From positions 1-64,000 of the forward strand of contig JAGNEJ010000003.1 of the NCBI GenBank assembly GCA_018003315.1: 64,000 nucleotides of DNA, written 5' to 3'. The position numbers and the translations under genes were made by a program. This document shows positions 20,517-36,005 of the stretch, one piece after another. Within the stretch, counting starts at the first letter, position 1. Every line of letters begins with the position of its first letter. Below the pieces are notes generated by a model. It worked only from the letters and a program-made list of their open reading frames with translations, had not been told where the DNA came from and did not search any database. This stretch comes from Verrucomicrobiales bacterium. Its GTDB lineage: Bacteria; Verrucomicrobiota; Verrucomicrobiia; Verrucomicrobiales; V1-33.

Positions 20517-20571
20517 GCCGGTGACCATGCAGAAAAACCGCCGGCCTGACAATCAGGCGTTTAAGTATCCG

Positions 20572-21480: not shown

Positions 21481-21723
21481 GAATGGGAGGGAAACTCAGT
21501 GCGCCATCCATAGCACACGCTGCCGGACACAAGGGGAAAATCTGCGTCCGCCCGCAGCCGCAATCAACCCAGCCTTGGCCGTAAATGAACTGAAGCGCAG
21601 TTGCGATGGTAGGCGTGGTCCGCCCGCATCCAACCGGCGGACGCAATGCGTTGAGATTTTCGTGGTCAGCCATTGCGAAACCCGTGCGCTGGTTTAGGAA
21701 AGCGTCCAAAGTCTCAGTCAACC

Positions 21724-22473
21724 ATGGCCGCTCCTGAAGGACCACGCGAATTCCCCGCCACCCGCTGGACCCAAGTCCGAAGGGCCTTGGCAGGCGATGA
21801 AAAAGAATCCGGATGCGCCATGGGCGAACTTTGTCGGGACTATTGGTATCCGCTTTATGCCTATGTCCGCCGCTCCGGGCAAAACCCGGACGAAGCCGAG
21901 GATCTGGTGCAGTCGTTTTTTCTCACCTTGCTGGCAAAGAAATACCTGGAAGACGCCAATCCAGCTAAAGGACGCCTCCGCACCTTCCTGCTCACCGCCC
22001 TGAAACGCTTCATGGCCAATGACTGGCGCAACCGCAACACGCTGAAACGCGGCGGCGGCGTCGAAATGGTCTCCATCGATGTGGACGAAGCCGAGGAACT
22101 CTACCGTCACGAACCTGCCGACTTCGCCAACCCCGAAGACCTCTACGAACACCGCTGGGTGCTCGCCCTCCTGCAAGGAGCCGTGGATCGGCTGCGCCTA
22201 TCCTATGCCGAAAGGGGCCGGGCGGATGCCTTCGACCTCATGCGGGACTTTCTTGATGACGATGGTCAAGCCGGTTATGCCGATCTTGGAAAGCAGATGG
22301 GAGTCACCGAAAATACAGCCCGGGCTGCGGTCTTTCGCCTGCGTCAGCAATACCGGCTCGCTCTCCAGGATGCCATCCGCGAAACACTCGACGACCCCAG
22401 CGACTCGTCCCTTCAGGAGGAACTAGGATATCTAAAAGATGTCCTGAGCCGCCAAGGCCGATCGTCCGCATAG
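21724..22473 (+). CDS. ECF-like RNA polymerase sigma factor
   Basis: A 249-residue sigma-70 family protein. Region 2 includes YWYPLYAYVRRSGQNPDEAEDLVQ-type sequence and FFLTLLAKKYL; region 4 helix-turn-helix includes YADLGKQMGVTENTARAAVF. The insertion between regions 2 and 4 (RNRNTLKRGGGVEMVSIDVDE) is characteristic of the large Planctomycetes/Verrucomicrobia ECF group, often encoded beside Ser/Thr kinases; none is adjacent here, nor is an anti-sigma gene. Met 21724 is chosen over an upstream in-frame Met because MAAPEG begins the family-like N-terminus. Confidence 0.88.
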   Translation: MAAPEGPREFPATRWTQVRRALAGDEKESGCAMGELCRDYWYPLYAYVRRSGQNPDEAEDLVQSFFLTLLAKKYLEDANPAKGRLRTFLLTALKRFMANDWRNRNTLKRGGGVEMVSIDVDEAEELYRHEPADFANPEDLYEHRWVLALLQGAVDRLRLSYAERGRADAFDLMRDFLDDDGQAGYADLGKQMGVTENTARAAVFRLRQQYRLALQDAIRETLDDPSDSSLQEELGYLKDVLSRQGRSSA

Positions 22474-22524
22474 CCCACTCCCGCATGCGCTAACTGAAAT
22501 GACGCAAGGCACTCCGCCGGGCAG

Positions 22525-23028: not shown

Positions 23029-23078
23029 AATCTCAGAACCCGATTATTCGCCGCGGCCCAAAGCGCGGCAACCCGAAT

Positions 23079-23096
23079 TTGTGAAAAATTTCACAA
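23079..23096. promoter_or_regulatory. 18-bp palindrome with CRP/FNR-type core (TGTGA-N6-TCACA)
   Basis: Seen directly: perfect 8-base arms TTGTGAAA and TTTCACAA separated by AA. The core equals the consensus TGTGA-N6-TCACA of CRP-like regulators. It is in the divergent region between nuoE (starts 23028, minus) and apaG (plus); its centre is about 59 bases from the nuoE start. A TTGACA hexamer lies 6 bases downstream on the plus strand but no good -10 follows. Binding is inference. Confidence 0.55.
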
Positions 23097-23173
23097 GCTC
23101 GATTGACACTGGTCAAACAACGGGTTTGTCGGGTAGAAGTGCGTCATTTGTTCACGGCGAAAAATACGAAAGA

Positions 23174-23560
23174 GTGACCGCAAAAATCAAAGAACTGCCC
23201 GGCCTCCAGGTTTCCATCGATGAGGTGCTCTACATGCCTGACCTCGATTCCCCCGCGGACCGACCCCATCCCTTTGTGTATTTCATCACCATCGCGAATC
23301 ACTCAGACACTCCGGTTACGGTCCGCGGGAGAAAATGGGTGCTACGGCAGGCGAATCGGGATGTGATCGTCGTCGAAGGGGACGGGGTGGTGGGCCAGTT
23401 TCCCCGACTCGCCTGCGGCGATGATTTTTCCTACAACAGTCGGCATTACGTCAGCCAAAGCGGAGAAGCGGAGGGGGCCTATTTCGTGGAAACCGACGAC
23501 GGACGCTTGTTCTGCGTTCGCATTCCCAAGTTTGACCTGAAACTGCCGGACTGGGTGTAA
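23174..23560 (+). CDS. apaG: ApaG domain protein
   Basis: A 128-residue protein with a GTG start chosen because it gives the usual ApaG length (about 125 residues). The all-beta ApaG fold is recognisable: LQVSIDEVLYMPD, FVYFITIANHSDTPVTVRGRKWVL, VEGDGVVGQFPRLACGDDFSYNS and IPKFDL. The frame is open upstream to 22982, but those residues overlap nuoE antisense and look non-coding; other near-by GTG/TTG starts are possible. ApaG was linked to cobalt/magnesium homeostasis in enterobacteria; its biochemical role is not established. A DUF2007 gene follows after 41 bases. Confidence 0.85.
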   Translation: MTAKIKELPGLQVSIDEVLYMPDLDSPADRPHPFVYFITIANHSDTPVTVRGRKWVLRQANRDVIVVEGDGVVGQFPRLACGDDFSYNSRHYVSQSGEAEGAYFVETDDGRLFCVRIPKFDLKLPDWV

Positions 23561-23601
23561 TTTCACGTGCGAAAGCCAACTCCCCACAGCATGGGTGGAC
23601 C

Positions 23602-23919
23602 ATGAAATCCGTTTTCATGGACGTAGATTCCACCCGCGTGGGCTACGCACAGTCGCTTTTGGAAGCAGCCGGCATTTCCTGTTTCGTCCGCAATGCCACT
23701 TCCCAGGCGCTTATCGGTGCGTCACTGACCGGAGCGCTGCGGCTGTTCGATCCGGAACTCTGCGTGTGGAACGACGCCGACCATGCAGAAGCGGTGCATA
23801 TTGTCCTGGCTGCCCTGGGACCGGGTGAAAACGGCCCCGACTGGCTCTGCCCTGCCTGTGGAGAAATGGCACCCCATGCTCACGATTCATGCTGGAATTG
23901 TCAGCATCCGCGCGGGTAA
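23602..23919 (+). CDS. DUF2007-type protein with C-terminal zinc ribbon
   Basis: A 105-residue protein. Residues 1-72 match the small ferredoxin-like DUF2007 domain (SLLEAAGISCFVRN, then ELCVWNDADHAEAVHIV), often described as a putative signal-transducing protein. The C-terminus has a zinc ribbon CPACGE...CWNCQH (two CxxC pairs). The combination suggests a small metal-binding adaptor, with function unknown. It lies 41 bases downstream of apaG and shares its orientation. The gene marks the left border of the remnant-rich accessory region. Confidence 0.8.
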   Translation: MKSVFMDVDSTRVGYAQSLLEAAGISCFVRNATSQALIGASLTGALRLFDPELCVWNDADHAEAVHIVLAALGPGENGPDWLCPACGEMAPHAHDSCWNCQHPRG

Positions 23920-24043
23920 ATTGTCGGTTAGGAATTCAATGCCCTGCTGGCGGGAGAATCATCCATTGGTGGGTACGATCCACACCTGGCAAGCGCTGCT
24001 CCAGGCATGTGGAACCGGGAAGCAGAAGCAGCCAGATCAACGC

Positions 24044-24730
24044 TCAACTTTTTTGCAAATCCCGCAGCGCATACAGCCCGGCATCCCGCTCCAGTATTCG
24101 CAGTCGCCGGGCACCGCTGGTGCGCTTCGGCCCAAATCGCTCCCGCGCACCGGCGAAGACTTCGTCAACAAACTCCCGGCTCCCCAACACCGCCCCCACC
24201 GTGAAATGCCGCACCCGCACCCGCAGCCGCACCACATCGGCCAGCCACAGCTTGCCCCCGGCTTTCAGCACGGCCTCGATCTGCTCCACCGCAAAGCCCT
24301 TCCTGCCAGGAGTCGTCCCGTCCGCTTTTACCTCCTGACCCTCCCAGCAAATCCATTTCCGATACACCGCCTGCGCCTCGTCCCACCGCATCGCCGCCGC
24401 AGTCTCCAGCTTCTGCCGCCGCAGAGCACCCACTGCCATCGCAATGCCCCGCCGAGCCAAGCGCCCGCCGCCCACCGCCTCCCCATAGCCACTCCACTCG
24501 TATTCCTTTGGATCACTCGCCAATCCTGCCCGCACCGGATTCAGATCAATGTAGGCCGCCATCGTCGCCACCGCATTGCCCGCTCCCTCCACCAGCACAC
24601 TGGCAAAACGCTCCTCCCACAGCGTCCCCTTGCGCCCGTGTTTCCGGTTGTACCATTTGGAAAACCCCAGCTTCAACGCCTGCACAAAGGCGCTGAGATC
24701 GAACATCCGCTTCCACAGCGCCGCCAGCAC
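24044..24730 (-). pseudogene. REP-associated tyrosine transposase (RAYT), N-terminal half missing
   Basis: Encodes 228 residues matching the C-terminal two thirds of RAYT / IS200-like transposases: RMFDLSAFVQALKLGFSKWY, KGTLWEERFASVLVEG, and MAAYIDLNPVRAGLASDPKEY, which carries the catalytic tyrosine helix, then a long C-terminal extension. The N-terminal domain with the His-x-His metal site (usually within NHFHLL) is absent, and upstream sequence in all frames does not restore it. The protein is therefore probably inactive as a nuclease, though an open frame of this length could still be expressed. A copy of a 25-bp repeat lies 54 bases upstream of the start. Confidence 0.75.
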
Positions 24731-24783
24731 GTTTGGAATCTCCCCCGCACACCCGTTGCTCCGCCACAGGCCAAACAGATCCT

Positions 24784-24808
24784 TCCGTTAAATTGTCTGA
24801 CATTATGT
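24784..24808. repeat. 25-bp direct repeat, left copy
   Basis: 22 of 25 bases match the copy at 26856-26880 in the same orientation, including 12 identical bases TCTGACATTATG at the right end. It lies just upstream of the truncated RAYT gene. The two copies bracket about 2.1 kb of small and damaged genes. Confidence 0.7.
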
Positions 24809-24842
24809 TTTATCAGTGGAATGTGATGAAGGAAGAAGGCCG

Positions 24843-25553
24843 TCAGCGTTTCATCAAGGCGGATTCGAGGGTGTGAAGCCGCCAGGATTGGAGGCATTTT
24901 TTGAGTTCGAGATAGTGGGACTCATACTTGGCGCAGGAGGCCGGAACCATGCGTCCGTCGGGGAAGCGATGGGACTTGCGTTCGGAAGTTTTCCTCTCTG
25001 CAATGGGCAGTGTGAATTCCCCAGCAACAGTGCTGAGCAGGCAGTTGCCGAGCAGAAAGAGCATGCCGCCAGCGTATTCGGAGGCAAGCCAGTCCTTCGT
25101 CTGCGCCATCTGAAGGGCGATGAGGAGCATTTGCTGCCGGATTTGGAAATGTTCGATGACGGCTGTCGGCTGGAGGGAGTGGCCGGTCGTTTTGGCATGG
25201 GCTTTCGCAGCCAAGCCCACGGACTCTCCTCCGGCGCGGGACGCGGGTGTGGGCACTGTGCCCAGAGAAATGATGAAGCGAAGGCTGACGTAGAACTGGA
25301 GTTCCAGCCAGACATGAGGGTTGCGAAATGGCGACTCAGAAGGAATGGCCTCCCAGGCGGAGCAGCCCAGGGAAAGCAGCTGCACCGTGTTCAGCGGGTG
25401 GCCTGAATCGCCGGTGGGGTGCATTCCCCGGAGTGCTGCGGTGAGGGAATCAATCGAGAGTGGTTCGTCATTTTGCGGCGCTTTGGAATGCGCTTTCATC
25501 CGGGTGGCCGGAGGGGCTTTGCCAAACAGAAGGGAGAGGAGTTTCCTGAACAT
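24843..25553 (-). CDS. Hypothetical protein
   Basis: A 236-residue protein with an amphipathic start (MFRKLLSLLFGKAPP), a variable linker and a mostly helical body (VWLELQFYVSLRFIISLG, then IRQQMLLIALQMAQTKDWLA). No enzyme motif, signal peptide or certain membrane helix is seen. It is not recognised. It lies inside the 24784-26880 repeat-bracketed segment, 23 bases downstream of the truncated DUF2130 gene on the same strand; the two and the YbjN gene may share a transcript. Confidence 0.6.
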   Translation of the reverse strand: MFRKLLSLLFGKAPPATRMKAHSKAPQNDEPLSIDSLTAALRGMHPTGDSGHPLNTVQLLSLGCSAWEAIPSESPFRNPHVWLELQFYVSLRFIISLGTVPTPASRAGGESVGLAAKAHAKTTGHSLQPTAVIEHFQIRQQMLLIALQMAQTKDWLASEYAGGMLFLLGNCLLSTVAGEFTLPIAERKTSERKSHRFPDGRMVPASCAKYESHYLELKKCLQSWRLHTLESALMKR

Positions 25554-25576
25554 GGCGGTTGCGAAAGCTGAAGTTT

Positions 25577-25990
25577 TTAGAGTTGAATGTGTTCCTTGTC
25601 TTCGGGTTCCTCCTGCAGGGCGACGAGTTCCTCTGCGGAGCCGTCCTCCGGCGCGGTCAGTTCCAGCACCGGGATGCCGGGCAGCGTAGCGCTGCCCACG
25701 ATGCCCTGGAGTTCGCCGTAAAGTGTGGCGGTGCCGCCGAGAACCCGGACCAGTTGCTTTTCCAGGCGCATCCGCTCGGAAACCTGGGCGTCCAGCTCGG
25801 TGCGGGCATTTTCCAGAGACTCCTTTTCAGAAGCAAGCTTCTTCCCACGGGCAGCCACGTCCTGCTCCAGTTTGCGCTGGCGCTGGGCGTATTCATTGGC
25901 CAATGGTTCGCGGATGCCGTGTGTCACCGCGGTCGTCGGCGGAATGGTGCCGTGACAGTTCGGGCAGGTGATGGTGGCTTCGGTGTTCAT
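25577..25990 (-). CDS. Internally deleted DUF2130-like protein (zinc ribbon plus coiled coil)
   Basis: A 137-residue protein. Residues 1-15 give one half of a zinc ribbon (ATITCPNCHG), as at the start of DUF2130 proteins, followed by a coiled coil rich in Glu, Lys and Gln (about 25-85) and then LYGELQGIVGSATLPGIPVLEL, which matches the extreme C-terminus of that family (LYGDLQGI...). Full-length DUF2130 proteins are roughly 400-450 residues and have a globular middle domain that is missing here. Met 25990 is chosen because it directly precedes the ribbon; in-frame Mets up to 26029 are possible. Function unknown. Confidence 0.6.
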   Translation of the reverse strand: MNTEATITCPNCHGTIPPTTAVTHGIREPLANEYAQRQRKLEQDVAARGKKLASEKESLENARTELDAQVSERMRLEKQLVRVLGGTATLYGELQGIVGSATLPGIPVLELTAPEDGSAEELVALQEEPEDKEHIQL

Positions 25991-26063
25991 GGCGGACATG
26001 GGTTTGGAAATGGGTTTGGCTACTGGCATGCGGGTGGCGCGTGGCGGCGCGTGGTGGAGCGGT

Positions 26064-26597
26064 TCAGTTCAATTCGGTAAGGCGGTTGAACGGCAGACAA
26101 TCAGGTGCTTCCGCTTCATCTTTCACCGGGCGCTCATCTCCCTCCACAATGGTCCGGAGCGTCCGGGTGACGGAGCCGCCGACAAGGGCAAACGCTGCCA
26201 GGTGCTCCGCAGCGTTGTGAAAAATCCCCAGGGCGCTGACGATGATTTCCCCGGCCTGATCCTCAAGCGGCAGGGAGGGCTCCACCGCCGCACCAAGGCG
26301 GAAGGAAATGCGCCCGTCCTTCGGATCCATGGAGTGGCAGCCAAAACGGGAGATCCCGTTGAGGCGGTTCAGCAGATCCAGCACTGCGGGCCGAAAGCGC
26401 CGCGCCACCGAGACCGGAAGCTCGCAGACGGCCTGCACCGCCAGTGGCGCCTCCTCGCATACCACCCTCCCGCAGATGGTGATGTTCCTGACTTCCACAA
26501 GGAAGGAAAAACACGACACCTCCGGGTGGGCCTCGACATTGAAATCGTTGGCGGAAAAGAAATCGCGGACGGCATGGAAGAGGTCAGTCTTGTTCAT
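26064..26597 (-). CDS. YbjN domain-containing protein
   Basis: A 177-residue protein of the YbjN fold, related to type III secretion chaperone-like folds: DLFHAVRDFFSANDFNVE, then FLVEVRNITICGRVVCEE, LLNRLNGISRFGCHSMD with following GRISFRLG, and a C-terminal helix pair. YbjN-type proteins are implicated in general stress and motility in enterobacteria, but no mechanism is established. Met 26597 is preferred as it begins the domain; a Met 26 codons upstream would add an unstructured Pro/Cys-rich piece. It lies 73 bases upstream of the DUF2130-like gene on the same strand. Confidence 0.72.
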   Translation of the reverse strand: MNKTDLFHAVRDFFSANDFNVEAHPEVSCFSFLVEVRNITICGRVVCEEAPLAVQAVCELPVSVARRFRPAVLDLLNRLNGISRFGCHSMDPKDGRISFRLGAAVEPSLPLEDQAGEIIVSALGIFHNAAEHLAAFALVGGSVTRTLRTIVEGDERPVKDEAEAPDCLPFNRLTELN

Positions 26598-26731
26598 GCG
26601 CAGAGTTTCGCACAAAACAGGCGGCTCTGCGCATTCCGGGATGTCCGGGGATGTGGAGAGCGTTGGATGGCTCATCCCGGATTCGTGTGGGAAAATGTCT
26701 GCGAAACGGGCTTTTTTGAGGAGATTGGAGG

Positions 26732-26833
26732 ATGACGGAGAACGACCTCGAACAGATGCTGGGTCTGGTGGAACCTTGGCAGGTTACTTCTTTGGAGATT
26801 GACCATGCGGCCCGCAAGGCGCTGCCGCTTTGA
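26732..26833 (+). pseudogene. ISL3-type transposase N-terminal stub
   Basis: A 33-codon frame (MTENDLEQMLGLVEPWQVTS, continuing LEIDHAARKA, then LPL and TGA) matches the extreme N-terminus of ISL3-family transposases, which begin with a short helix, L-G-L-x-x-P-W-x-V and a beta strand ending in A-R-K. The rest of the roughly 400-residue protein is missing, and the sequence changes character after the Lys codon. A well-placed AGGAGATTGGAGG purine-rich stretch precedes the ATG. This is a deletion remnant. Confidence 0.55.
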
Positions 26834-26855
26834 AAAACGCACCGTTTTCCCCGTT

Positions 26856-26880
26856 TTCCGTTATTTTATCTGACATTATG
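26856..26880. repeat. 25-bp direct repeat, right copy
   Basis: Matches 24784-24808 at 22 of 25 positions, same orientation, with identical TCTGACATTATG at its right end. It lies directly after the ISL3 transposase stub and 44 bases from the end of the exported-protein operon. Confidence 0.7.
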
Positions 26881-26923
26881 ATGCGTTGGCTTGCGTTGGC
26901 TTGTGCTCGATCACTGTGCGTGT

Positions 26924-27358
26924 TTACGGTTGTTTGAGGCGGAAGTAGCGGCGCGGCCCGTTGGCTATGGGCCAGAGGTGTGACCCACCGGTGCTGGCGG
27001 AGGGAATTTGGAAAGTGAAGGTCCAGGTTTGGAGATTTGGAGATTGCTGGAGAGTGCAACCCGCTGCGGCTGCGGTCCATGTGAGGCGCACATGAGTGGC
27101 GCTCTCGCGGGTAATGGTGAGCACGGGGCCGCCCGGTTCGGCGACGGTGCCGGGCCAGAAGCCGCCTTGCACAGCCGAAACACCGCCGGTGCTTTTGGAT
27201 GCCGTGGCATCTGCCTGACCGATGGTGCCTGTGACCTTCCAGTCGCCGCCGGTGGATCTGCCGCCGCCGCCATCGAGCGTGTAACTTTTGATGTCCCACG
27301 GGCCGCCGGATTGCGCCGCGGCGCTGCCGGTGAGGAGGATGATGCAGAGGGTTTTCAT
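26924..27358 (-). CDS. Small exported beta-rich protein
   Basis: A 144-residue protein with a short signal peptide (MKTLCIILLTGSAAAQ) and two recognisable parts. One is the repeat-like exported module common in Verrucomicrobia, SYTLDGGGGRSTGGDWKVTG continuing to IGQADA and GGFWPG; the other is a fibronectin-like beta domain ending LQQSPNLQTWTF and RRYFRLKQP, typical of verrucomicrobial surface proteins. It is the last gene of a four-gene minus-strand run and starts 4 bases after the metalloprotease gene. Upstream in-frame extension is antisense-like and rejected. No enzymatic role is visible. Confidence 0.75.
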   Translation of the reverse strand: MKTLCIILLTGSAAAQSGGPWDIKSYTLDGGGGRSTGGDWKVTGTIGQADATASKSTGGVSAVQGGFWPGTVAEPGGPVLTITRESATHVRLTWTAAAAGCTLQQSPNLQTWTFTFQIPSASTGGSHLWPIANGPRRYFRLKQP

Positions 27359-27362
27359 GGGT

Positions 27363-28682
27363 TTAGTTTCCGCGGACACTGAAGGTGCCGGACTGCGCGC
27401 CGGGAATGTTCGCGCCGCGGGTGGCGCGGATGGTGCAGGGTTTGTTGAGTCGCAGTGTGGTGCCCAGGGTGTAGGTGCCGGGCCGCCCGAGGACGATGTC
27501 GCCGGCCTGGAGCGAAGCGTTGTTCTGAGTGGCGCTGGCAAAACCGCCATAGGGCCGCCTGCTACTGCCAAGGGGTGCAACGGGATCGGTGATCGGCCCC
27601 CCGTAAAACCACCAACGCCCCGTGGCGGTGGGCGTGCGGGTGGAAAAGGCGGCCATGCTGTCGGCCACTTTGTCGAGTTGCTGTTCTGTAAAGAGCCACT
27701 GCTCCTCCGGCGGTGCACCTTTGTGGTAGCTAAGGAGGTTCTGCCAGACGAGCCGGATTTCCGCCTGCCGCACAGCGTCCAGCGGTTGCCAGTTGGGTGG
27801 GCCTATGAGCCATTTGAGCTGCGCAATTTTACCCATCACCGCCACCTGAGCCGTCTGACCTGCATTGAGTCCGGGGTAGTCCACGCCGTAGAGTGCCTGG
27901 CTCACGCTGTTGTGATAGGTGAGATAGACGCCCCCGAATATGGGTGGAATCAGCGGCTCCGTTATGCTCCAGGCATCGGTCGGAGTATCGGTGAGATCGT
28001 CGTCTCCCAGCGTATTCTCGTTCGCCGTGCCTCCGGTTTTACTGTTGAACGGGTGCAAGAGACTGGCCCAGTGCCCCCACTCGTGCAGGAAAAGCGACCG
28101 GTCACCCAAATTCGAGAGGTAGAAGAGGTTGTCGCTGCAGTTCGAGGGATTCGGGAAGGAACCGACTCCGCCCGAATATTCGGGCCAGATGAGGTACACG
28201 TTGCAGGCGCTGCTGCGATAGGAGAAGGCGGACTTGTTGTCGCAGATGGCCTCGCGCCACATGCCGGCCAGTTCTTCACCGACATCGATGGTTTCGTTGA
28301 AGGGGCCGTCCGGGGTGCGGGACCGGTTCGTGAGATTGGCCGGAGGTTCGTGCATCCACGTGGAAGGGGTGGGATCGTTGTTGTCGTTCCACCACTGCCG
28401 CCAGGAAATCGGCTGTACAGTGGTCCAGGTGGTGGGATCAGAGTAGAAACGCCGGAAAGGCAGGGGGACGCTTGGGTTGAGGCGCACCACTTCCTCCAGC
28501 TTGAAGCGCAGGCCGCGACCCTGACGGTCGAGCACCCGGTTGGCATTGGTTACGGCATTTTGGGCGGCCGTTTGCACCGCCTGGTCATCAGTGGTGCCAA
28601 AGTATTTTACCGAGATGCGCACCTCGACGTGGCCGGCGCGCAGAAATCCGGCGGTGGCCAGCAGCAGAAAAAGGAACTTCAT
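27363..28682 (-). CDS. Exported zinc metalloprotease, M43/pappalysin-like
   Basis: A 439-residue protein with a signal peptide (MKFLFLLLATAGFLRA) and a zincin motif HEWGHWASLLH (His200, Glu201, His204, His210) followed, at the spacing seen in M43 cytophagalysins, by GDDDLTDTPTDA. The usual metzincin Gly at the eighth motif position is Ser. A family Met-turn was not confidently located. Four cysteines in the middle could form disulfides. It probably cleaves proteins outside the cell; whether it acts on neighbours of the same operon is unknown. Spacing is 18 bases from the upstream tail-fibre-like gene and 4 to the next gene. Confidence 0.78.
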   Translation of the reverse strand: MKFLFLLLATAGFLRAGHVEVRISVKYFGTTDDQAVQTAAQNAVTNANRVLDRQGRGLRFKLEEVVRLNPSVPLPFRRFYSDPTTWTTVQPISWRQWWNDNNDPTPSTWMHEPPANLTNRSRTPDGPFNETIDVGEELAGMWREAICDNKSAFSYRSSACNVYLIWPEYSGGVGSFPNPSNCSDNLFYLSNLGDRSLFLHEWGHWASLLHPFNSKTGGTANENTLGDDDLTDTPTDAWSITEPLIPPIFGGVYLTYHNSVSQALYGVDYPGLNAGQTAQVAVMGKIAQLKWLIGPPNWQPLDAVRQAEIRLVWQNLLSYHKGAPPEEQWLFTEQQLDKVADSMAAFSTRTPTATGRWWFYGGPITDPVAPLGSSRRPYGGFASATQNNASLQAGDIVLGRPGTYTLGTTLRLNKPCTIRATRGANIPGAQSGTFSVRGN

Positions 28683-28700
28683 ACGTTAGGCAAACGAAGG

Positions 28701-30161
28701 TTACTGGAGCGTGACGAGCACGAGCACGAGACCTGTGCCTTTGTCGAGGTTGCTCATGGCCTTTCCGAGGATGGCGCCGCGGGCTTTTTCGTAGTCCTTT
28801 GCCTTCATGGCGTGGCCGGGGGTGGAGGAAGTGGTGAGCAGGTCGCCGGGCCTGACCTTTCCAAACGACGCATCCGCCTTCACATAGACACGGCCACTGA
28901 GTGCGACGTGGTGGTCGCCCTCCATGACCCCCTCCTGGTGCAAGCGCAGGCCGGGTTTCACGCCTCCGGCACCGCTAATGATGCCGGCCACGCGCTTGTC
29001 GTAGCTTTTGGTACTCTTCATCAGATGACCGGCGTTGTCTTCATCGATGACCACCACCGTGCCGGGATCCATCTCCTCAGAATTCGTCATTTCGAATGGC
29101 TCGGCCACATCCGCACCGCCGCGTATGGTCATCACGGTTGTGGAGATTTCTCCCACAAGATACATGTCGCCGTTTGGAGAAAAGGCGACCACGTCGCTTC
29201 CGTTGCTGCTGTTCCAGAAAGCAAGCTGCCCCACACCACCGTTGTTTCGGGAATACATGGCCCATTCCTGCGCGGAGTTGTTGCGGTTCACCACATTCAC
29301 GCCGCTCTCACTGCCTCGGGCGGTGAGCGTGCCGTTGCCGCTGAGCGTCATCACCGTGGTCCCGCCGCTTCCGGCATTGTTCGCGACATCGGAATGAGTG
29401 CCATTCTTGAACCACGCAAACTGCCCGGCGGTGCGGAAATACTGCGTGTTTGCCTGCACGCCGATGCCGTAGTCGCTATTGTAAAGATTGAGCATCTGCC
29501 GCGTCTGATTGCCAAAGTTGACCGTCGTCCCGTTGTCGATGCCCAGCGCCCCCGTCATGGTGCCGCCGGACTTTTGGAGGAATGCAGTGGAATCCAGCCC
29601 GTCGAACAAATCCGAGTTCAGGTTAGGCACCTTCGTGGTGTGACTGACATGGAACGGCGGCGTGCCCACCAGACTGGAAAAGCTGGCGCCTCCATTGCCA
29701 AACGTCAGCGGGGCATTGGTCGTGCCGCCGCCTATCTGCGCTGCCGGCAGCGTGCCGGTGATCTGTGCCGCGGGCACACTGCCGCTCACTGTCGCAGCGT
29801 TGCCGGCGGTCAGGGCATACGGCGTCCACGTCACCTGCTGGCGCGGCGTCAGCAGCGTGTAAGTCGCACCAGCATCGCTGCTGATTTCGATGTTCATGAA
29901 GCGCGCCGTTCCCGGAAAATCCGCTGAGGTGAAGCTGACGGGCGTCACCGTGAAGACACCACCCGTCACCGTCACGCCAGAGACCACCTCCGTGCGTATG
30001 GGCGTGCCACCCGTGAGGGCTGCATACAATCCCAATCGGATATGCACGGTGCCAGTGTAGGCGGCCCCGTTGTTCTCAAGGCGTCCCTGGTAGGTAAACG
30101 GTGTCTGCGCGGGCAGGTGCAGTATGGTGCAGAGTAGAGTGGTGGGCAGGAGTCGTTTCAT
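28701..30161 (-). CDS. Exported tail-fibre-like repeat protein
   Basis: A 486-residue protein with a signal peptide (MKRLLPTTLLCTILHLPAQ), then a beta module FTYQGRLENNGAAYTGTVHI...TPRQQVTWTPYAL that is frequent in Planctomycetes and Verrucomicrobia surface proteins, low-complexity Gly/Thr/Ala repeats (AQITGTLPAAQIGGGTTN) like phage tail fibres, and a C-terminal module: GGADVAEPFE, PGTVVVIDEDNAGHL, KRVAGIISGAGG, VALSGRVYVKADASFG, GDLLTTSSTPGHAMKA, GLVLVLVTLQ. This end module occurs at the C-terminus of tail-fibre-like and other large bacterial proteins. An adhesive or receptor-binding role is inference. It is cotranscribed with the transglutaminase-like and metalloprotease genes (gaps 25 and 18 bases). 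Confidence 0.75.
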   Translation of the reverse strand: MKRLLPTTLLCTILHLPAQTPFTYQGRLENNGAAYTGTVHIRLGLYAALTGGTPIRTEVVSGVTVTGGVFTVTPVSFTSADFPGTARFMNIEISSDAGATYTLLTPRQQVTWTPYALTAGNAATVSGSVPAAQITGTLPAAQIGGGTTNAPLTFGNGGASFSSLVGTPPFHVSHTTKVPNLNSDLFDGLDSTAFLQKSGGTMTGALGIDNGTTVNFGNQTRQMLNLYNSDYGIGVQANTQYFRTAGQFAWFKNGTHSDVANNAGSGGTTVMTLSGNGTLTARGSESGVNVVNRNNSAQEWAMYSRNNGGVGQLAFWNSSNGSDVVAFSPNGDMYLVGEISTTVMTIRGGADVAEPFEMTNSEEMDPGTVVVIDEDNAGHLMKSTKSYDKRVAGIISGAGGVKPGLRLHQEGVMEGDHHVALSGRVYVKADASFGKVRPGDLLTTSSTPGHAMKAKDYEKARGAILGKAMSNLDKGTGLVLVLVTLQ

Positions 30162-30186
30162 GGGGCGTGGTGTTGACGGACTTTCG

Positions 30187-30792
30187 CTAGACGTTCGCGG
30201 GGGTGAGGTCGAAGAGCATCCGAGTATCAGATGAGGCGCGCATGGCATCGAGCACGGTGGGCAGCGGGGCGCAATGCACATGGGGGTAATCCACCTCTCC
30301 GCGGTCCGGGCTGATGGCATAAGCGAGCTGTTCGTTCTGCGGGGAGAATTGGGAATTCACTCCCGGCTTATTGCCGCGCGGATCGACCCGAAACCAGCCG
30401 TGGGGTTCCAGGTAAAGCGCATTGAGGCCATGCAGGCCAAAACTCTCGCCTGTGGCACTTTGACGGAGCACGCGTTGATAGCAGAACCCTGCGGGGATGC
30501 CCATGCCGCGCAGCAATGCCGCAAGCAGATGGGACTTGGCGAAACAGATGCCGCAGCGGTGCTGGAGGACATCCTCGGAGTGAACGGTCACCCGGGGGTC
30601 CTTGGTGTCAAAGGAATGAAGCACCTCATCACGCACAGCTTCAAATGCCAAACGAGCACATGCTTCGAGTGAATTGCCTGCCGCTTTGATTTCTGAAATT
30701 TTGGCGCGAATGAGTGGCGAGCGGAAGGAAATGACGGGCGGAATTTCGCCGAGGTAATCCTCAAGGTGTTCGGATTCCAACTGGAGCTGCAT
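30187..30792 (-). CDS. Transglutaminase-like cysteine protein (cytoplasmic)
   Basis: A 201-residue single-domain transglutaminase-like protein. The presumed triad is Cys in HRCGICFAKS, His in GLHGLNALYL and Asp in WFRVDPRGNKPG. No signal peptide is seen when the start is placed at 30792 (MQLQLESEHLEDYLGE); an in-frame extension upstream does not look coding. It is the first gene of the exported-protein operon, 25 bases from the tail-fibre-like gene. The family includes peptidases and amide-forming enzymes; its association with three exported proteins suggests modification of one of them, but that is inference. Confidence 0.8.
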   Translation of the reverse strand: MQLQLESEHLEDYLGEIPPVISFRSPLIRAKISEIKAAGNSLEACARLAFEAVRDEVLHSFDTKDPRVTVHSEDVLQHRCGICFAKSHLLAALLRGMGIPAGFCYQRVLRQSATGESFGLHGLNALYLEPHGWFRVDPRGNKPGVNSQFSPQNEQLAYAISPDRGEVDYPHVHCAPLPTVLDAMRASSDTRMLFDLTPANV

Positions 30793-30952
30793 GGGGCACC
30801 TTGTCCGGCATCTCCTGCCTTGCAACCACAGGATGCCGTAACCACGGAACAGATTCCTCCCCGAGCCACCCCGCAGCAACCATGCGGGGAGTGCTGCCGA
30901 CTGGTGCGCATCACCACTCGCCAAGCGCCCCGCTCACTCGCTCCCACCAGAA

Positions 30953-30988
30953 ACGGCAACAGGCGACCACCGGGCCGCCTGTTGCCGT
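30953..30988 (-). terminator. Perfect 13-bp hairpin, possible minus-strand terminator
   Basis: Seen directly: arms ACGGCAACAGGCG (30953-30965) and CGCCTGTTGCCGT (30976-30988), loop of 10 bases. Read on the minus strand it is followed by TTTCTGG, only three Ts, so termination would be weak. It lies between the small gene ending at 31026 and the operon starting at 30792. Confidence 0.45.
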
Positions 30989-31025
30989 GAAACGAAACGG
31001 AATCGAAACTCGAACGGGTAACGGC

Positions 31026-31220
31026 CTATTTTGCCGCGACACGGCGCCGCGCCTCCTCGAGGCATTCGGCTAAAAACAATCCTAACGGATCGTATTGGCT
31101 GACTTGACTGCCAAGAAGCGCGAGGTTGGCCCTTCCTGTGGCAGTGCGGCGGGTTCCGGTCCTGGACGAGGAACGGCGGGAGCTTGGGCGGTCGAGGGTT
31201 GCAATGCGGTTGAGGTGCAT
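31026..31220 (-). CDS. Possible small protein (64 residues)
   Basis: The frame gives a basic, Ser/Arg-rich first half and a more protein-like second half ending SQYDPLGLFLAECLEEARRR. There is no ribosome binding site, no recognisable domain and no support beyond the open frame and the hairpin 37 bases downstream. It could be a genuine small basic protein or chance. Confidence 0.25.
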   Translation of the reverse strand: MHLNRIATLDRPSSRRSSSRTGTRRTATGRANLALLGSQVSQYDPLGLFLAECLEEARRRVAAK

Positions 31221-31516
31221 GACGCGGGTATCAGGTTGGTGGTTGCGGATTGGGTTGAGTAGGTGCGCTCGCTCGATAAAAATTAGTTAATGCAGCGGCA
31301 ATTTAGTCTCCACTTCTTGGAAATCGAGCCTAAATTAGCTCAAAACAAAATTTTCATCAAAGCGATGGTTGGTTTTTATCACTTGCAAACTCATTGCGCA
31401 AGAAAATTCGCGCTAATGAAAGTAATTTCTCTCTAATTTAGTAAAATCCAATGAGTTTTCGGTTGCGATGGCAAAATTTTTCTCTAAATTTGAATTGTTT
31501 CAAAATTTTCCACGAC
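31221..31516. promoter_or_regulatory. AT-rich upstream region of the winged-helix-like gene
   Basis: About 300 bases without a convincing gene, much richer in A and T than the flanks from about 31270 on. It contains CTAAATTAG at 31330-31338 and its reverse complement CTAATTTAG at 31433-31441, plus a related AATTTAG near 31300. These could be operator half-sites for the gene that follows. A reading frame starting at 31451 runs into that gene but encodes low-complexity residues. Confidence 0.4.
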
Positions 31517-32014
31517 ATGCCGAGCGAATACTTTTTCCGAGCGTTGGATGCGGTCTATGGGACTCCCGATGAGGATTTGCCGTATCTCTATGGGGTGCTG
31601 ACAAAGGAAATGAGTCGCCGGGGAATGCGGATGCCGGAAACGGGTGGGCTGACGCCGCAGGAAGAACTGGCAGGCAAGGCGATGGTGACCCTGCAGCGAG
31701 GAGACAATCTGGTTGGATGGGAAATGGCATTGTTGGCGGGAGTGGTGACGTTGTTTGGCACCCAGTTTGGCAAGGGTGAAGTCGAGGCCTTCGCCAGCCG
31801 GGATGTGACCAACGAGCTGAACCGGGTGCAGAAAACCATCGCGAACATCACCTCGGTGATGGACACGCTGCAGGAGCGGGGTCTGGTGGAGACCGTGGAA
31901 GGCGATGCGAAAAAGGGAGCGCACAAGAGCTTCAAGGTGACCGCCAAGGGCGAAGCGGAGACGATGCGGATCTGGCAGCGGGTTTGCGGCACGGAGAAAC
32001 GGGGGATCGCCTGA
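31517..32014 (+). CDS. Winged-helix-like protein of unknown function
   Basis: A 165-residue protein. Residues 1-45 are helical (EYFFRALDAVYG), and the C-terminal part looks like a winged helix: WEMALLAGVVTLFGTQF, then FASRDVTNELNRVQKTIANI, TSVMDTLQERGLVE and a basic wing KGAHKSFKVTAKGEAE. A recognisable relative is encoded at 63584-64000 with the same order ALLA...F-[AS]-S-R...[VI]-A-x-ITS. Met 31517 is preferred to an in-frame Met at 31451, whose residues come from the AT-rich leader. The protein is not adjacent to an obvious target; the sulfatase gene is 80 bases downstream. Confidence 0.65.
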   Translation: MPSEYFFRALDAVYGTPDEDLPYLYGVLTKEMSRRGMRMPETGGLTPQEELAGKAMVTLQRGDNLVGWEMALLAGVVTLFGTQFGKGEVEAFASRDVTNELNRVQKTIANITSVMDTLQERGLVETVEGDAKKGAHKSFKVTAKGEAETMRIWQRVCGTEKRGIA

Positions 32015-32094
32015 CAAACGGCATCACCGACGGGTGGAGCGAAAGCCGCGAATGTGCGATTGCCCGGCAGCGGGCAGTTTGCTGAAGTTCGGAG

Positions 32095-33426
32095 ATGCAA
32101 ACGCTGATTTGTCTGCTGCTGCTTTGTGGGATGGTCGTGCCGTCGAAAGCTGCGGGTAACCCCAACGTGGTCTTCATTATTTCCGATGACCAGGCGTGGA
32201 CCGACTATGGATTCATGGGGCACCCGGAAGTGGAAACACCCCACCTGGACAAACTTTCCCGGCAAAGCCTCACCTTCACTCACGGGTATGTGCCCACCAG
32301 CCTCTGCTGTCCGTCGCTTGCGGCCCTGCTCACGGGAAAATTTCCCCATGAGACCAAGGTGACAGGAAATGAACCGCCGCGCCCCAGGGATGCGAACGGC
32401 AAGCCATCGAGTCAGGCGTATCAGGACCCTGGATTTCTCGAACAGGTGGCCACGCTCAACGGATTCATCACCGCCCATCCGCGATTGCCCGCGGAACTGG
32501 CCAAAGCAGGATATTTGAGCTTCCAGTCTGGCAAATGGTGGGCGGGGAATTTTTCCAGCGGCGGCTTCACCCACGGGATGAGCCATGGTTCGGCAGCCAA
32601 GGGCGGACGTCATGGGGATGTGGGATTGGAAATCGGACGCAAAACCCTGCAACCGATTTTTGATTTCCTGGCCGAAGCGCAGCGGCAGCAGCGTCCCTTT
32701 TTTCTCTGGTATGCGCCGATGCTTCCGCACCAGCCGCATGATCCACCCCCGCGCCTGCTGGAAAAATACCAGAAACGAACCCCATCGCTTCCTGTGGCCA
32801 AATACTGGGCGATGTGTGAGTTGTTCGACGAAACCTGCGGCCAACTGCTGACCCATTTGGAACAGCAGAACCTTGCCGACCATACGCTGGTCGTTTTCCT
32901 CAGCGACAATGGATGGATTCAGGATCCGGAGCGGCCCCGGTTCCGCGCCGACTCCAAACTCAGCCAGTATGACGGCGGCTTGCGCACCCCCATCCTGATC
33001 CGCTGGCCAGGCAGGGTCACGCCGGAAATCAATGCCACGCCAGTCAGCAGTGTGGACCTTGCCCCGACGATTTACCGTGCAGCCGGTCTGGCCGTGCCCG
33101 CAGGTCTGTCCGGAATCAACCTGCTGGATGCCGCGGCGGTGAGGAGGCGCAGTCCCGTTTTCGGCGAATGCTTTCTACACAATGCCGTGGATATCCAAAA
33201 TCCGGCCGCAAACCTGACCTACCGCTGGTGCGTGGCCGGAGACTGGAAATTGATCCTGCCCAACGCCGCCAATATCGCCGCTCCCAACAAACCCGGACGA
33301 AGCATTGGTCCGGAGCTTTATGACCTGGCCCGCGATCCGCTGGAGGATAAAAACCTGGCGGACGAAAAACCGGAAAAAGTCAGGGAATTGACCGGACGAA
33401 TCGACGCGTGGTGGAAGCCGCAATGA
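32095..33426 (+). CDS. Exported sulfatase with altered formylglycine motif
   Basis: A 443-residue alkaline-phosphatase-superfamily sulfatase with a signal peptide (MQTLICLLLLCGMVVPSKA), metal-binding N-terminus NVVFIISDDQAWTDYGFMG and the activation segment TSLCCPSLAALLTG. The FGly position would be Cys71, but the canonical C-x-P-S-R reads C-C-P-S-L, with Leu75 replacing the Arg that the maturase and active site normally use. Later metal and sulfate motifs are present (MLPHQPHDPP, VVFLSDNGWI, SQYDGGLRTPILIRWPG). Members desulfate polysaccharides or glycosaminoglycans. No maturase gene is adjacent. Whether the Leu variant is active is uncertain. Confidence 0.92.
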   Translation: MQTLICLLLLCGMVVPSKAAGNPNVVFIISDDQAWTDYGFMGHPEVETPHLDKLSRQSLTFTHGYVPTSLCCPSLAALLTGKFPHETKVTGNEPPRPRDANGKPSSQAYQDPGFLEQVATLNGFITAHPRLPAELAKAGYLSFQSGKWWAGNFSSGGFTHGMSHGSAAKGGRHGDVGLEIGRKTLQPIFDFLAEAQRQQRPFFLWYAPMLPHQPHDPPPRLLEKYQKRTPSLPVAKYWAMCELFDETCGQLLTHLEQQNLADHTLVVFLSDNGWIQDPERPRFRADSKLSQYDGGLRTPILIRWPGRVTPEINATPVSSVDLAPTIYRAAGLAVPAGLSGINLLDAAAVRRRSPVFGECFLHNAVDIQNPAANLTYRWCVAGDWKLILPNAANIAAPNKPGRSIGPELYDLARDPLEDKNLADEKPEKVRELTGRIDAWWKPQ

Positions 33427-33441
33427 TCTGCCGGAGCACCC

Positions 33442-34533
33442 TCACGCCCCCGGTTTGGTCAGCTCCAGCACCCGGGGTTCACCATTGTCCACGCCGTCGA
33501 AGATCACCAGCGTCTTGATGCTGGTATCGGTTTCCCCCAGAACCAGCAGGCCCTCAGCCTTTGCTTTCCCTCCGGGCAGGGTGGAGAGCTTCAGCAGCGG
33601 CGCGGCATTGCCAGGACGCCACCACCAGAGGACGTATTCGCGCGCTTCATCGTAGTCGATGGACTGGGGAAATTTCTTGGATGGTTCGGGGCCGGCATTT
33701 CCTGCCAGGACGAGGAATCCATCCTTCATCGGAGCAAGCTCCCGGATGCCGAATCCAGCGCCGAGAGCAATTTCATGAATGGCAACTTCGGGCATGGCCT
33801 CTGTGAACAGCGGCTCTGCCGCGGTTTCCAAAACGAAGGCATTGCCATTGCGGTTCGGCCCCCTGACGCCGATGAAGAGGCGTCCGGTCTTGCAGGCGAG
33901 TCCTTCGATGTTGAAGCCCCGCTGCTGGAGCGGACGAGCAACGGAATCGGCAAATGGCGACTGGCGCAGCCACGGCAGCAGGCTGGTGGACTTGATTCCG
34001 GTGGCCTGGGGGACACCGGAGGCATCCGCCGGAATGCGGAAGACAAAGCATCGGTCATTTTGAAACTCACCCTTCTTTTTGCTGGCCCCGTGCGACCCCA
34101 CCGCATAGTAGCATGCCGCTTCGGGATTGGCGGCCGCGCCTTCCAGGTCGGCTTCCGTGGCTCCGCTAACGGAAAAAAGCGGAATCATCTCCCCGGCGGT
34201 GATGGTGCTTTTCTCAGGAGAAACGAGAATGGCCTGCGCCGCCCGCAATTCATCGCTGACCATGATGCCGTGGCCGCTGGCACCCATGACGGCGAGTGCG
34301 CTCAAGTCGGCAGACTCCGAAAAAGCACCGGCCATGACGAATGCCGGATACTGTGAAAGGTCCTGCACCACGGACGCATTCTTGGCTTTGCCGGGAGCCG
34401 AAGCGGACCCCGCCTTCTGGCGGTCGCAGGAACTGGTGGCGAAGAGCAGCACTGGCAGGAAGGACAAACGCAGGAAGGTTGCGGTCCAATCCGGATGCAG
34501 ACGGGCTGAATGAGGGGCGGCGGGGGCGTTCAT
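33442..34533 (-). CDS. DUF3616 lipoprotein
   Basis: A 363-residue protein with a lipobox FATSSC (Cys36) after an N-terminal extension, then a beta-propeller-like DUF3616 domain: ASGHGIMVSDE, DLEGAAANPEAACYYAVGSHG, NIEGLACKTGRLFIGVRGP, GIRELAPMKDGFLVLAGNAG and KAEGLLVLGE. The four-bladed spacing suits a propeller with possible phytase- or esterase-like relatives, but no activity is established. Its start overlaps the end of the DUF1501 gene by 4 bases, so the two are translationally coupled. The sulfatase gene converges on it from the other strand. Confidence 0.85.
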   Translation of the reverse strand: MNAPAAPHSARLHPDWTATFLRLSFLPVLLFATSSCDRQKAGSASAPGKAKNASVVQDLSQYPAFVMAGAFSESADLSALAVMGASGHGIMVSDELRAAQAILVSPEKSTITAGEMIPLFSVSGATEADLEGAAANPEAACYYAVGSHGASKKKGEFQNDRCFVFRIPADASGVPQATGIKSTSLLPWLRQSPFADSVARPLQQRGFNIEGLACKTGRLFIGVRGPNRNGNAFVLETAAEPLFTEAMPEVAIHEIALGAGFGIRELAPMKDGFLVLAGNAGPEPSKKFPQSIDYDEAREYVLWWWRPGNAAPLLKLSTLPGGKAKAEGLLVLGETDTSIKTLVIFDGVDNGEPRVLELTKPGA

Positions 34534-36005
34534 GCCAGAATTTCGGCGATGATTTCGCCATGGTCAATTTCCAAGCGACGCCGGTCCGGAATTTCCAGAC
34601 GGCGGGAATCGAGCCCAAGCAGATGGAGGGTGGTGGCGTGAATGTCAGTGATATAGTGACGGTTTTCGACGGCATGAAAGCCCAGATCGTCCGTGGCACC
34701 GTGCTGCGTGCCGCCCTTGATGCCGGCACCGGCAAACCAGGCGCAAAAGCCCTGGGGATGATGGTCGCGTCCGCTGTCCTGGGCACCGGGAGTGCGTCCG
34801 AATTCCGTGCCGAAAACCACCAGCGTGTCTTTGAGCAACCCACGCTGCTTCAGATCCTTCAATAGCCCGGCAATCGGCTGGTCAACCTGCGCCGACAGCG
34901 TGCCGTGGTTGGCTTTGATGCCGGAATGAGCATCCCAGGCCCCACCGCCTCCGCCGCCGTGAAACAACTGGACAAAGCGCACGCCCCTTTCGACCAGCCG
35001 TCGTGCGGCCAGACACTGCCGGGCAAAATCACGGCATTCCGCACGGTGGAAGCCATAGAGGCTGCGCGTGGATTCGCTTTCCTTGTCCAAATCCAGGGTC
35101 TCGGGCACTGCCGCCTGCATTTGATAGGCCAGTTCGTAGCTTTTGATTCTGGCGCGCAGCTCCCGGTCCTCGGGGTAGTCGATTCCGGAGAGCGCATTGA
35201 GCTTCCCCAGCAGGCTGAGTTCCGCCAGTTGCTCCTCGCGCGTCGGTCCTGCTGGCCCGGCGGAAAGAAACGGAAGCGGGTGCGCTGGGTCGGTGGAAAA
35301 GCGCACCCCGGCATGTTCCGGCCCCAGGTAGCCCGCGCCATGCGTCCAGGCTCCGCCGCAGCAGTCGCCGGTCGGCGTTCCCAACACCACGTATTCCGGC
35401 AGGTTTTGATTCAGGCTGCCCAGACCATAACATGCCCAGGAACCGATGGTGGGCAGGCCGCCTTCCCGGACATGCCTGCCGGTGTGCCAGGTGAGCTGGG
35501 CACCGTGGTCATTGTCCTTGGTCCAGAGGGAACGCACCACCGCAAGGTCATCCGCACAGGTGCCGATCTGTTCAAACCAGTCCCCCACCACCAATCCGCT
35601 CTGACCATGCGCCCGGTATCCGCATTGCAGAGGCATGATGACCTTGCGGTTGCCGTGGCTGGGGTTGCCGCCCACGATGTTCTTTTGCGCCGTTTTCAGG
35701 ACATCCTTGTAGGGCGTGTCCTCTATCGACTTTCCACCATGCACGTTCAGGGCAGGCTTCACGTCAAAACTCTCCACATGGCTGACCCCGCCGCAGAGGA
35801 AAATCCAAATCACCGACCTGGCCTTCGGTTGAAAATGCGGAAGCCCGTTCGGCGGCCCCCACGGCTGGTGAAATCCTCCCGTGGCCGCTGCGGACCGCTG
35901 ATGCCCGCCTAACAGGGCCGTGAGGGCGACACCGGTGAAGCCCAGACCGGTATCGGCCAGAAAAGTCCTGCGGGTAACTCCGCGGCAGCGGAAGGATGCA
36001 TTCAT
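34530..36005 (-). CDS. DUF1501 protein with Tat signal
   Basis: A 491-residue alkaline-phosphatase-like DUF1501 protein. Met 36005 opens a twin-arginine signal (TRRTFLADTGLGFTGVALTA); the frame continues upstream but that part is antisense to another gene and lacks protein character. Domain landmarks: SVIWIFLCGGVSHVESFDVK, MPLQCGYRAHGQSGLVVGDW, HGGGGGGAWDAHSGIK, DTLVVFGTEFGRTPGAQ and HHPQGFCAWFAGAGIKGG. In Planctomycetes and Verrucomicrobia such genes normally follow a DUF1549/DUF1553 cytochrome-like gene; that partner is missing and a DUF3616 gene is coupled instead. Substrate unknown. Confidence 0.92.
   Translation of the reverse strand: MNASFRCRGVTRRTFLADTGLGFTGVALTALLGGHQRSAAATGGFHQPWGPPNGLPHFQPKARSVIWIFLCGGVSHVESFDVKPALNVHGGKSIEDTPYKDVLKTAQKNIVGGNPSHGNRKVIMPLQCGYRAHGQSGLVVGDWFEQIGTCADDLAVVRSLWTKDNDHGAQLTWHTGRHVREGGLPTIGSWACYGLGSLNQNLPEYVVLGTPTGDCCGGAWTHGAGYLGPEHAGVRFSTDPAHPLPFLSAGPAGPTREEQLAELSLLGKLNALSGIDYPEDRELRARIKSYELAYQMQAAVPETLDLDKESESTRSLYGFHRAECRDFARQCLAARRLVERGVRFVQLFHGGGGGGAWDAHSGIKANHGTLSAQVDQPIAGLLKDLKQRGLLKDTLVVFGTEFGRTPGAQDSGRDHHPQGFCAWFAGAGIKGGTQHGATDDLGFHAVENRHYITDIHATTLHLLGLDSRRLEIPDRRRLEIDHGEIIAEILA

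What the first reader, a model, noticed from the sequence alone, without database searches (positions are those of the whole stretch)
26924..30792. Compact operon joining a transglutaminase-like enzyme, a tail-fibre-like protein, an M43-type protease and a small exported protein
Four minus-strand genes have gaps of only 25, 18 and 4 bases. The second to fourth products have signal peptides; the first is cytoplasmic with a Cys/His/Asp triad. A tail-fibre-like exported protein next to a HEWGHWASLLH protease and an amide-chemistry enzyme looks like a self-contained surface or secreted system, possibly adhesin maturation or a delivered effector set. I do not recall this combination as a named system. 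The cassette lies beside transposase remnants, which suggests a mobile or variable locus.
Basis: partly seen in the sequence, partly recalled or inferred. Interest (0 to 1): 0.62.

Follow-up and report, generated by a model that had tools for sequence, protein, structure and literature searches.

The report
Surface-fibre operon with swappable enzyme
An uncultured bacterium of the Verrucomicrobiota carries a small gene set for an exported phage-like fibre, an exported protein-cutting enzyme and a small partner protein; relatives keep the fibre and partner but exchange the enzyme for quite different ones that share a common end piece, which suggests an undescribed way of arming a surface fibre with interchangeable enzymes.

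Summary
The four minus-strand genes and their gaps (25, 18, 4 bp) are real. The first gene, the transglutaminase-like one, does not belong to the conserved unit: it is absent beside related cassettes, has no clear orthologue in 12 family genomes, and is a stand-alone family elsewhere. The other three form a unit: fibre, exported hydrolase, small 'GTIGQ' protein. Eleven fibres with the same C-terminal tip were found in sampled Verrucomicrobiota; in all ten with sequence downstream, an exported hydrolase follows within 27 bp. Its class changes: M43 (window and four other loci), M4, M6, M12B, beta-lactamase-fold hydrolase plus a nuclease-like protein. All share a ~75-residue tail, the first coil of a right-handed beta-helix, which ends the protein in most; in other proteins a long helix follows it. 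The fibre's N-terminal domain also occurs on S74- or FGE-tipped fibres, which carry the same small partner (14 of 14 full-length copies lie next to such a fibre) but no tail-bearing hydrolase. The fibre resembles Bdellovibrio MAT fibres without meeting their cut-off; its tip probably has a phage-decoration-protein fold. Best reading: a trimeric surface fibre whose tip carries an exchangeable enzyme, docked by the tail. The cassette is well supported; docking is inferred.

The parts
28701..30161 (-). exported fibre gene, 486 aa
   Evidence: ORF; 60% identical to the G001 fibre at the head of the same gene order
30108..30161 (-). probable Sec signal peptide of the fibre (residues 1-18)
   Evidence: read from sequence; equivalent signal-like N-termini in related fibres
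29802..30098 (-). fibre N-terminal 'YQGxL' beta domain (about residues 22-120), shared with S74-, FGE- and otherwise-tipped fibres; weakly like the MAT N-terminal domain
   Evidence: HMM of this domain finds the other fibres at 4e-15 to 1e-34; NF053851 E 0.03 here, 3.8e-5 in the G357 fibre; AlphaFold strands with pLDDT about 75-87 for residues 21-80, falling to 46 by residue 110
29142..29801 (-). fibre stalk (about residues 121-340), variable in length among relatives
   Evidence: alignments A2 and A9; monomer model not confident there
28704..29141 (-). fibre C-terminal tip domain (residues 341-486)
   Evidence: conserved in 11 sampled Verrucomicrobiota fibres; homologous C-termini in IMG/VR contigs; fold search hits phage decoration proteins
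27363..28682 (-). exported M43-like metalloprotease, 439 aa
   Evidence: zinc motif and alignment to homologues; Pfam M43 in homologues
28053..28085 (-). zinc-binding motif HEWGHWASLLH (residues 200-210)
   Evidence: sequence; His200, Glu201, His204, His210 invariant
27723..27740 (-). Met-turn-like NLLSYH (residues 315-320); Met replaced by Leu, whereas all five related M43 proteins have NLMSYH or NVMSYH
27366..27632 (-). C-terminal tail of the protease (residues 351-439), the first coil of a right-handed beta-helix
   Evidence: tail HMM and leave-one-class-out tests
26924..27358 (-). small exported GTIGQ partner protein, 144 aa
   Evidence: full-length relatives, 14 of 14 next to a YQGxL fibre
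30187..30792 (-). transglutaminase-like gene upstream, probably co-transcribed but not a conserved part
21673..22473 (+). ECF-type sigma factor gene near the cassette (possible regulator, not shown)
   Evidence: homologues lie within 10 kb of 5 of 6 cassettes in the order

Best explanation
Genes 2-4 encode one secreted, surface-exposed apparatus. The fibre is exported, trimerises, is held at the cell side by its N-terminal domain (probably with the small GTIGQ protein), and projects a C-terminal tip with the fold of phage decoration proteins. The M43-like protease is exported with it and docks on the tip through its C-terminal tail, a solitary first coil of a beta-helix that leaves an open strand edge. 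The fibre finds a surface or polymer and the enzyme acts there. Over evolution the enzyme slot is refilled with other exported hydrolases that carry the same tail. Shown: the conserved three-gene unit, the exchange of enzyme class, the shared tail, the link of tail to tip type, and the link of small protein to fibre. Inferred: trimer, surface location, docking, target. The transglutaminase-like gene is a neighbour, not a part.
For: (1) All 10 fibres of this tip type with downstream sequence are followed within -4 to 27 bp by a hydrolase gene with an export signal. (2) Classes: M43 in five loci (window, G001, G275, G662, G636; only G275 and G662 pass the Pfam cut-off, the rest by homology or sub-threshold match), M4 (2e-31), M6 (6e-25), M12B (3e-17), beta-lactamase fold (G357, G453), plus a borderline exo/endonuclease-phosphatase match (G453). 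(3) A tail HMM trained without a class still finds it: M6 1e-9, M4 8e-8, serine hydrolase 1e-7, M12B 1.5e-7, nuclease-like 1e-6, Runella 2e-7; in 291 ORFs it hits only the cassette hydrolases, next best 0.18. (4) In other proteins the motif opens a long beta-helix. (5) On the tip tree M43 and the serine hydrolase each occur on both sides of a 99/99 branch. (6) S74-, FGE- and otherwise-tipped fibres share the N-terminal domain and the small protein but no tail-bearing hydrolase. (7) 14 of 14 full-length small proteins lie next to such a fibre. (8) A relative in Runella follows its fibre and carries the tail plus a type IX sorting domain, which argues for an extracellular protein.
Against: No direct evidence of interaction, trimer or location. 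The fibre model has mean pLDDT 50 (only the two end domains are usable) and the protease model 32, so neither tests docking. The G275 tail is not recovered when M43 tails are left out (E 7.2). Tails of G636 and G662 are followed by a further extension of about 100 residues and the nuclease-like protein carries the tail at its N-terminus, so the tail need not be terminal. The gpD-like fold rests on one low-confidence model; the tool does not print the aligned segment, and a profile search of PDB sequences found nothing.
Confidence: 0.55

Rival explanations
1. Co-regulated but physically separate secreted proteins: the genes form an exoprotein operon, fibre for adhesion and hydrolase for feeding. 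The tail is a secretion, stability or retention signal and does not bind the fibre.
For: No interaction data. One tail is N-terminal and two are followed by an extension. Unrelated exported hydrolases are plausible feeding enzymes.
Against: The tail-bearing hydrolase goes with one tip type only, although S74- and FGE-tipped fibres share N-terminal domain and small partner. A general secretion signal should also occur on exported proteins away from fibres; among 291 ORFs it did not, though that set is small and neighbourhood-biased.
Confidence: 0.27
2. Interbacterial effector set: the fibre targets a competitor or prey cell and the hydrolase is the toxic part.
For: Similarity to MAT fibres of a predator; exchange of an effector part recalls polymorphic toxins; a sister fibre contains a whole VgrG.
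Against: No immunity-like gene follows the hydrolase; M43, M4 and M6 peptidases are ordinary degradative exoenzymes; no delivery machine is encoded beside it.
Confidence: 0.1
3. Adhesin maturation: the protease processes the neighbouring fibre.
For: Immediate adjacency; some fibre families are processed by proteolysis.
Against: The slot is filled by several unrelated hydrolase classes, two of them not obviously proteolytic, while the tip stays over 50% identical.
Confidence: 0.06

Closest known systems
Mosaic adhesive trimer (MAT) fibres of Bdellovibrio bacteriovorus (PMC10769870)
   Same: signal peptide, conserved N-terminal beta-rich domain of about 130 residues, long stalk, exchanged C-terminal tips including S74 and non-S74; weak profile similarity to NF053851 (3.8e-5 to 0.03)
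   Different: all scores are far below the NCBIfam cut-off (60 bits); the tip differs from those I read of; no hydrolase or GTIGQ partner is mentioned in the passages I read (I did not read the whole paper)
Phage capsid decoration proteins (gpD-like beta-tulip fold)
   Same: predicted fold: cyanophage Pam3 8hdt_G (E 8e-4), phiCD508, XM1, lambda gpD 1c5e (probability 0.99)
   Different: here apparently the end domain of an exported fibre, not a capsid protein; no sequence match in the PDB
Peptidase_S74 / Peptidase_G2 self-cleaving chaperone tips of phage fibres
   Same: same C-terminal position on fibres; the Runella relative matches Peptidase_G2 at 3e-4; homologous tips end giant proteins on viral contigs
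   Different: window match E 0.1, below cut-off; self-cleavage not tested
Peptidase family M43 (pappalysin/ulilysin type)
   Same: HExxHxxxxxH and a Met-turn-like motif; two homologues pass the Pfam cut-off
   Different: position 8 of the zinc motif is Asn or Ser instead of the usual Gly (usual form from memory), Met-turn Met is Leu in the window protein, extra C-terminal tail
Stand-alone 'transglutaminase family protein' (PF01841), as on Priestia, Synechocystis and Acinetobacter plasmids
   Same: gene 1 is 42% identical over its full length to the Priestia protein
   Different: here it happens to lie upstream of a fibre operon

Membership tests
MAT fibre superfamily | N-terminal MAT domain above the curated cut-off (NF053851, 60 bits) | tested here: not met
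   14.1 bits in the window fibre, 23.6 at best in the G357 fibre
MAT fibre superfamily | signal peptide directly followed by a beta-rich domain of about 130 residues | tested here: met
   sequence; strands in the model
MAT fibre superfamily | conserved base with exchanged tips | tested here: met
   N-terminal HMM finds S74-, FGE- and VgrG-bearing fibres at 4e-15 to 1e-34
MAT fibre superfamily | trimeric, displayed on the cell surface | not testable with these tools
   only monomer prediction available
Peptidase M43 | zinc motif HExxHxxGxxH | tested here: inconclusive
   all metal-binding and catalytic residues present, Gly replaced by Ser or Asn
Peptidase M43 | Pfam PF05572 above gathering score | tested here: not met
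   window protein 14.8 vs 23 bits; homologues P0010 26.1 and L115 25.7 pass
Peptidase M43 | Met-turn methionine | tested here: not met
   NLLSYH in the window, NLMSYH or NVMSYH in five homologues
Peptidase_G2 / S74 tip | Pfam match above gathering score at the fibre C-terminus | tested here: not met
   G2 E 0.1, 12.4 vs 25 bits; no S74 match
Phage decoration (gpD-like) fold | structural similarity of the tip to solved decoration proteins | tested here: inconclusive
   best E 8e-4, many hits of one kind, but one model with mean pLDDT 50; aligned segment not shown
Transglutaminase-like superfamily (PF01841), gene 1 | Transglut_core above gathering score | tested here: met
   49.2 vs 23 bits

The most novel reading that the evidence does not exclude
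A two-part display system in which a phage-decoration-like fibre tip is a generic socket and a solitary beta-helix coil is the plug, letting bacteria of more than one phylum fit one kind of surface fibre with unrelated exported enzymes.
Probability: 0.35. Interest if true: 0.8.

Novelty: new variant of a known kind. Interest (0 to 1): 0.6.

Why it matters
If the tail binds the tip, this would be a natural plug-and-socket for putting enzymes on bacterial surface fibres: it would explain a recurring cassette of unannotated genes, give a function to an unnamed small exported protein family, and offer a short tag for enzyme display. Even without docking, it identifies a fibre family related to the predator MAT fibres in Verrucomicrobiota, with a constant partner gene.

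Tried and rejected
Transglutaminase as part of the system: rejected. Conserved neighbourhood by protease alone: the window's M43 subfamily is rare, and the only other genome-contig hit besides the sister genome was a Saprospiraceae M43 protein in a different context; switching to the fibre tip as query revealed the cassette. Tail as a common C-terminal domain: the phylum-wide hits were the starts of long beta-helices. Structure of the protease: model useless. PDB sequence search for fibre, tip and transglutaminase: nothing useful. Annotated phage records: one partial stalk match only. Promoter consensus, tRNA and Rfam scans: nothing; terminator-like sites at chance level. Distant fibre relatives on Streptomyces, Rhodococcus and Paraburkholderia plasmids lack clear signal peptides and have mixed neighbours, so they were not counted. 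Literature: no description of the combination found, but only open-licence papers are held.

Full report
OBSERVATION. The window lies in a 5.1 Mb Verrucomicrobiota genome assembly (G000, contig C142). Signal peptides on genes 2-4 were read by eye. Gene 1 is a transglutaminase-like protein without a signal peptide. No tRNA lies in the window and no Rfam family within 20000-36000.

GENE 1 IS NOT PART OF THE UNIT. In the sister species G001 the fibre (60% identical) is followed by two M43-like proteases and the small protein, with a divergent kinase gene upstream and no transglutaminase. A search of 13 family genomes found only weak, partial matches outside the window genome (best 1e-7, residues 67-149). 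Full-length relatives (mostly 41-48% identity) lie on plasmids of Priestia, Synechocystis, Acinetobacter and others; the three neighbourhoods read hold unrelated genes. The 25-bp gap still makes co-transcription likely.

THE THREE-GENE CASSETTE. Using the fibre tip as query in the phylum draw (388 genomes), 57 relatives, 240 genomes of the order and 288 of another class (the draws overlap), I found eleven close relatives: window; G000:C120, a second copy in the same genome; G001; G275; G357; G249; G453; G607; G609; G636; G662. The G609 contig ends 263 bp after the fibre. In the other ten the next gene downstream is a hydrolase with an export signal (by eye): 18 bp away in the window, overlapping by 4 in G000:C120, then 9 (G001, assuming a GTG start), 23 (G275), 27 (G357), 6 (G249), 9 (G453), 13 (G607), 15 (G636) and 19 bp (G662). 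Classes by Pfam: M4 in G000:C120, M6 in G249, M12B in G607, beta-lactamase fold in G357, and in G453 a borderline exo/endonuclease-phosphatase match followed by a beta-lactamase-fold hydrolase; M43 in the window, G001 (two), G275, G636 and G662, of which G275 and G662 pass the Pfam cut-off. More distant relatives of the tip (G302, G156, G081) do not show this arrangement.

THE SHARED TAIL. These hydrolases share a region of about 75 residues (...PY.S...A....GDtI.i..G.Y.....l.Kp..i.a..G...i) that resembles the beginning of a right-handed beta-helix. Of the other proteins among the 30 best phylum-wide hits, those whose frame could be followed continue for about 300 residues or more after the motif; two placements were ambiguous in the script and one ran off its contig. 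In the cassette hydrolases it ends the protein, except in G636 and G662 (an extension follows), in Runella (a type IX sorting domain follows) and in the nuclease-like protein (N-terminal). Leave-one-class-out HMMs recover the held-out proteins at 1e-9 to 5e-3, except G275 at 7.2. Among 291 ORFs of the fetched loci only cassette hydrolases were hit, the next best at 0.18; the hits there include the training sequences.

EXCHANGE OF THE ENZYME. A tree of tip domains has a 7-member clade (99/99) holding M4, M6, M12B, M43 (window, G001), a beta-lactamase-fold case (G453) and G609; outside it lie M43 (G275, G636, G662), the other beta-lactamase-fold case (G357) and Runella. At least two classes occur on both sides, so enzyme and fibre have not simply co-descended. 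Within the clade most branching is unresolved.

THE SMALL PARTNER. Profile A13, run on 12 chosen genomes and 57 relatives, found 14 full-length copies. All 14 lie next to a signal-peptide fibre with the YQGxL N-terminal domain (one of them with the fibre on the other side, one after an intervening tail-less M12B protease): six with the tip described here, the rest with S74, FGE-sulfatase or unidentified tips. In G275, G453 and G607 a larger protein with a similar motif lies at the cassette (by eye only). An HMM of the N-terminal domain built from fibres of this tip finds the others at 4e-15 to 1e-34. None of the S74- or FGE-tipped operons examined has a tail-bearing hydrolase.

FOLD OF THE FIBRE. 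The AlphaFold monomer is confident only at the two ends. Foldseek against the PDB returned mostly phage capsid-decoration proteins at the top (Pam3 8e-4; phiCD508; XM1; lambda gpD probability 0.99) and, in the viral set, mostly uncharacterised phage proteins and a tail protein. The length of the alignments suggests the C-terminal domain, but the segment is not printed. The protease model is unusable.

MECHANISM. Shown: a conserved operon of fibre, exported hydrolase and small protein; exchange of hydrolase class with retention of the tail; restriction of tail-bearing hydrolases to one tip type in the loci seen. Inferred: the tail docks on the tip. A solitary beta-helix coil exposes strand edges that commonly pair with a partner (general structural knowledge), and the tip is the fibre part that correlates with presence of the tail. 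The small protein correlates with the N-terminal domain, so it probably acts at the base. Surface or secreted location follows from signal peptides and from the type IX sorting domain in Runella. The target is unknown.

KNOWN RELATIVES. Bdellovibrio MAT fibres have the same plan (signal peptide, beta-rich base of about 130 residues, stalk, exchanged tips; PMC10769870). Our fibres score at most 23.6 of the required 60 bits, so they are MAT-like, not MAT members by that test.

SCORE. The association is strong and cross-checked, the mechanism plausible but untested, the organisms known only from sequence here. Interest 0.6.

Noticed in passing
L144:4997-8500 (G662:C281): A signal-peptide YQGxL fibre that contains a complete VgrG (TIGR03361, 1e-134) followed by an S74 chaperone: an exported fibre with a type VI spike inside.
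   Followed up: partly
window 21673-22473; L043:12209-12973; L107:2983-3807; L005:6939-7685; L015:3738-4478: An ECF-type sigma factor gene lies within 10 kb of 5 of 6 cassettes in the order; from 3-33 copies per genome I estimate by hand about 0.26 expected by chance. Ser/Thr kinase genes, several with WD40-like repeats, often sit with it.
   Followed up: partly
L139:8283-9815 (G054): A YQGxL fibre whose tip is an FGE-sulfatase domain (2e-47), followed directly by the small GTIGQ protein.
   Followed up: partly
L092:6150-6869 (Paraburkholderia plasmid): Two genes after a fibre-tip relative lies a small metalloprotease-like protein (HEFGHMLGLPDE) with no evident signal peptide; possibly a cytoplasmic version of the pairing.
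   Followed up: no
L013 (CALQSQ010000002.1): The sister genome's record is labelled Akkermansia muciniphila (a metagenome bin) although it is placed in the window's genus; the label was not checked and may be wrong.
   Followed up: no
window 24044-24730: Weak match to an IS200/REP-associated transposase, apparently without its N-terminus.
   Followed up: no
window 30953-30988: 16-nt inverted repeat (94% complementary) with a 4-nt loop upstream of gene 1; may end or insulate a transcript.
   Followed up: no
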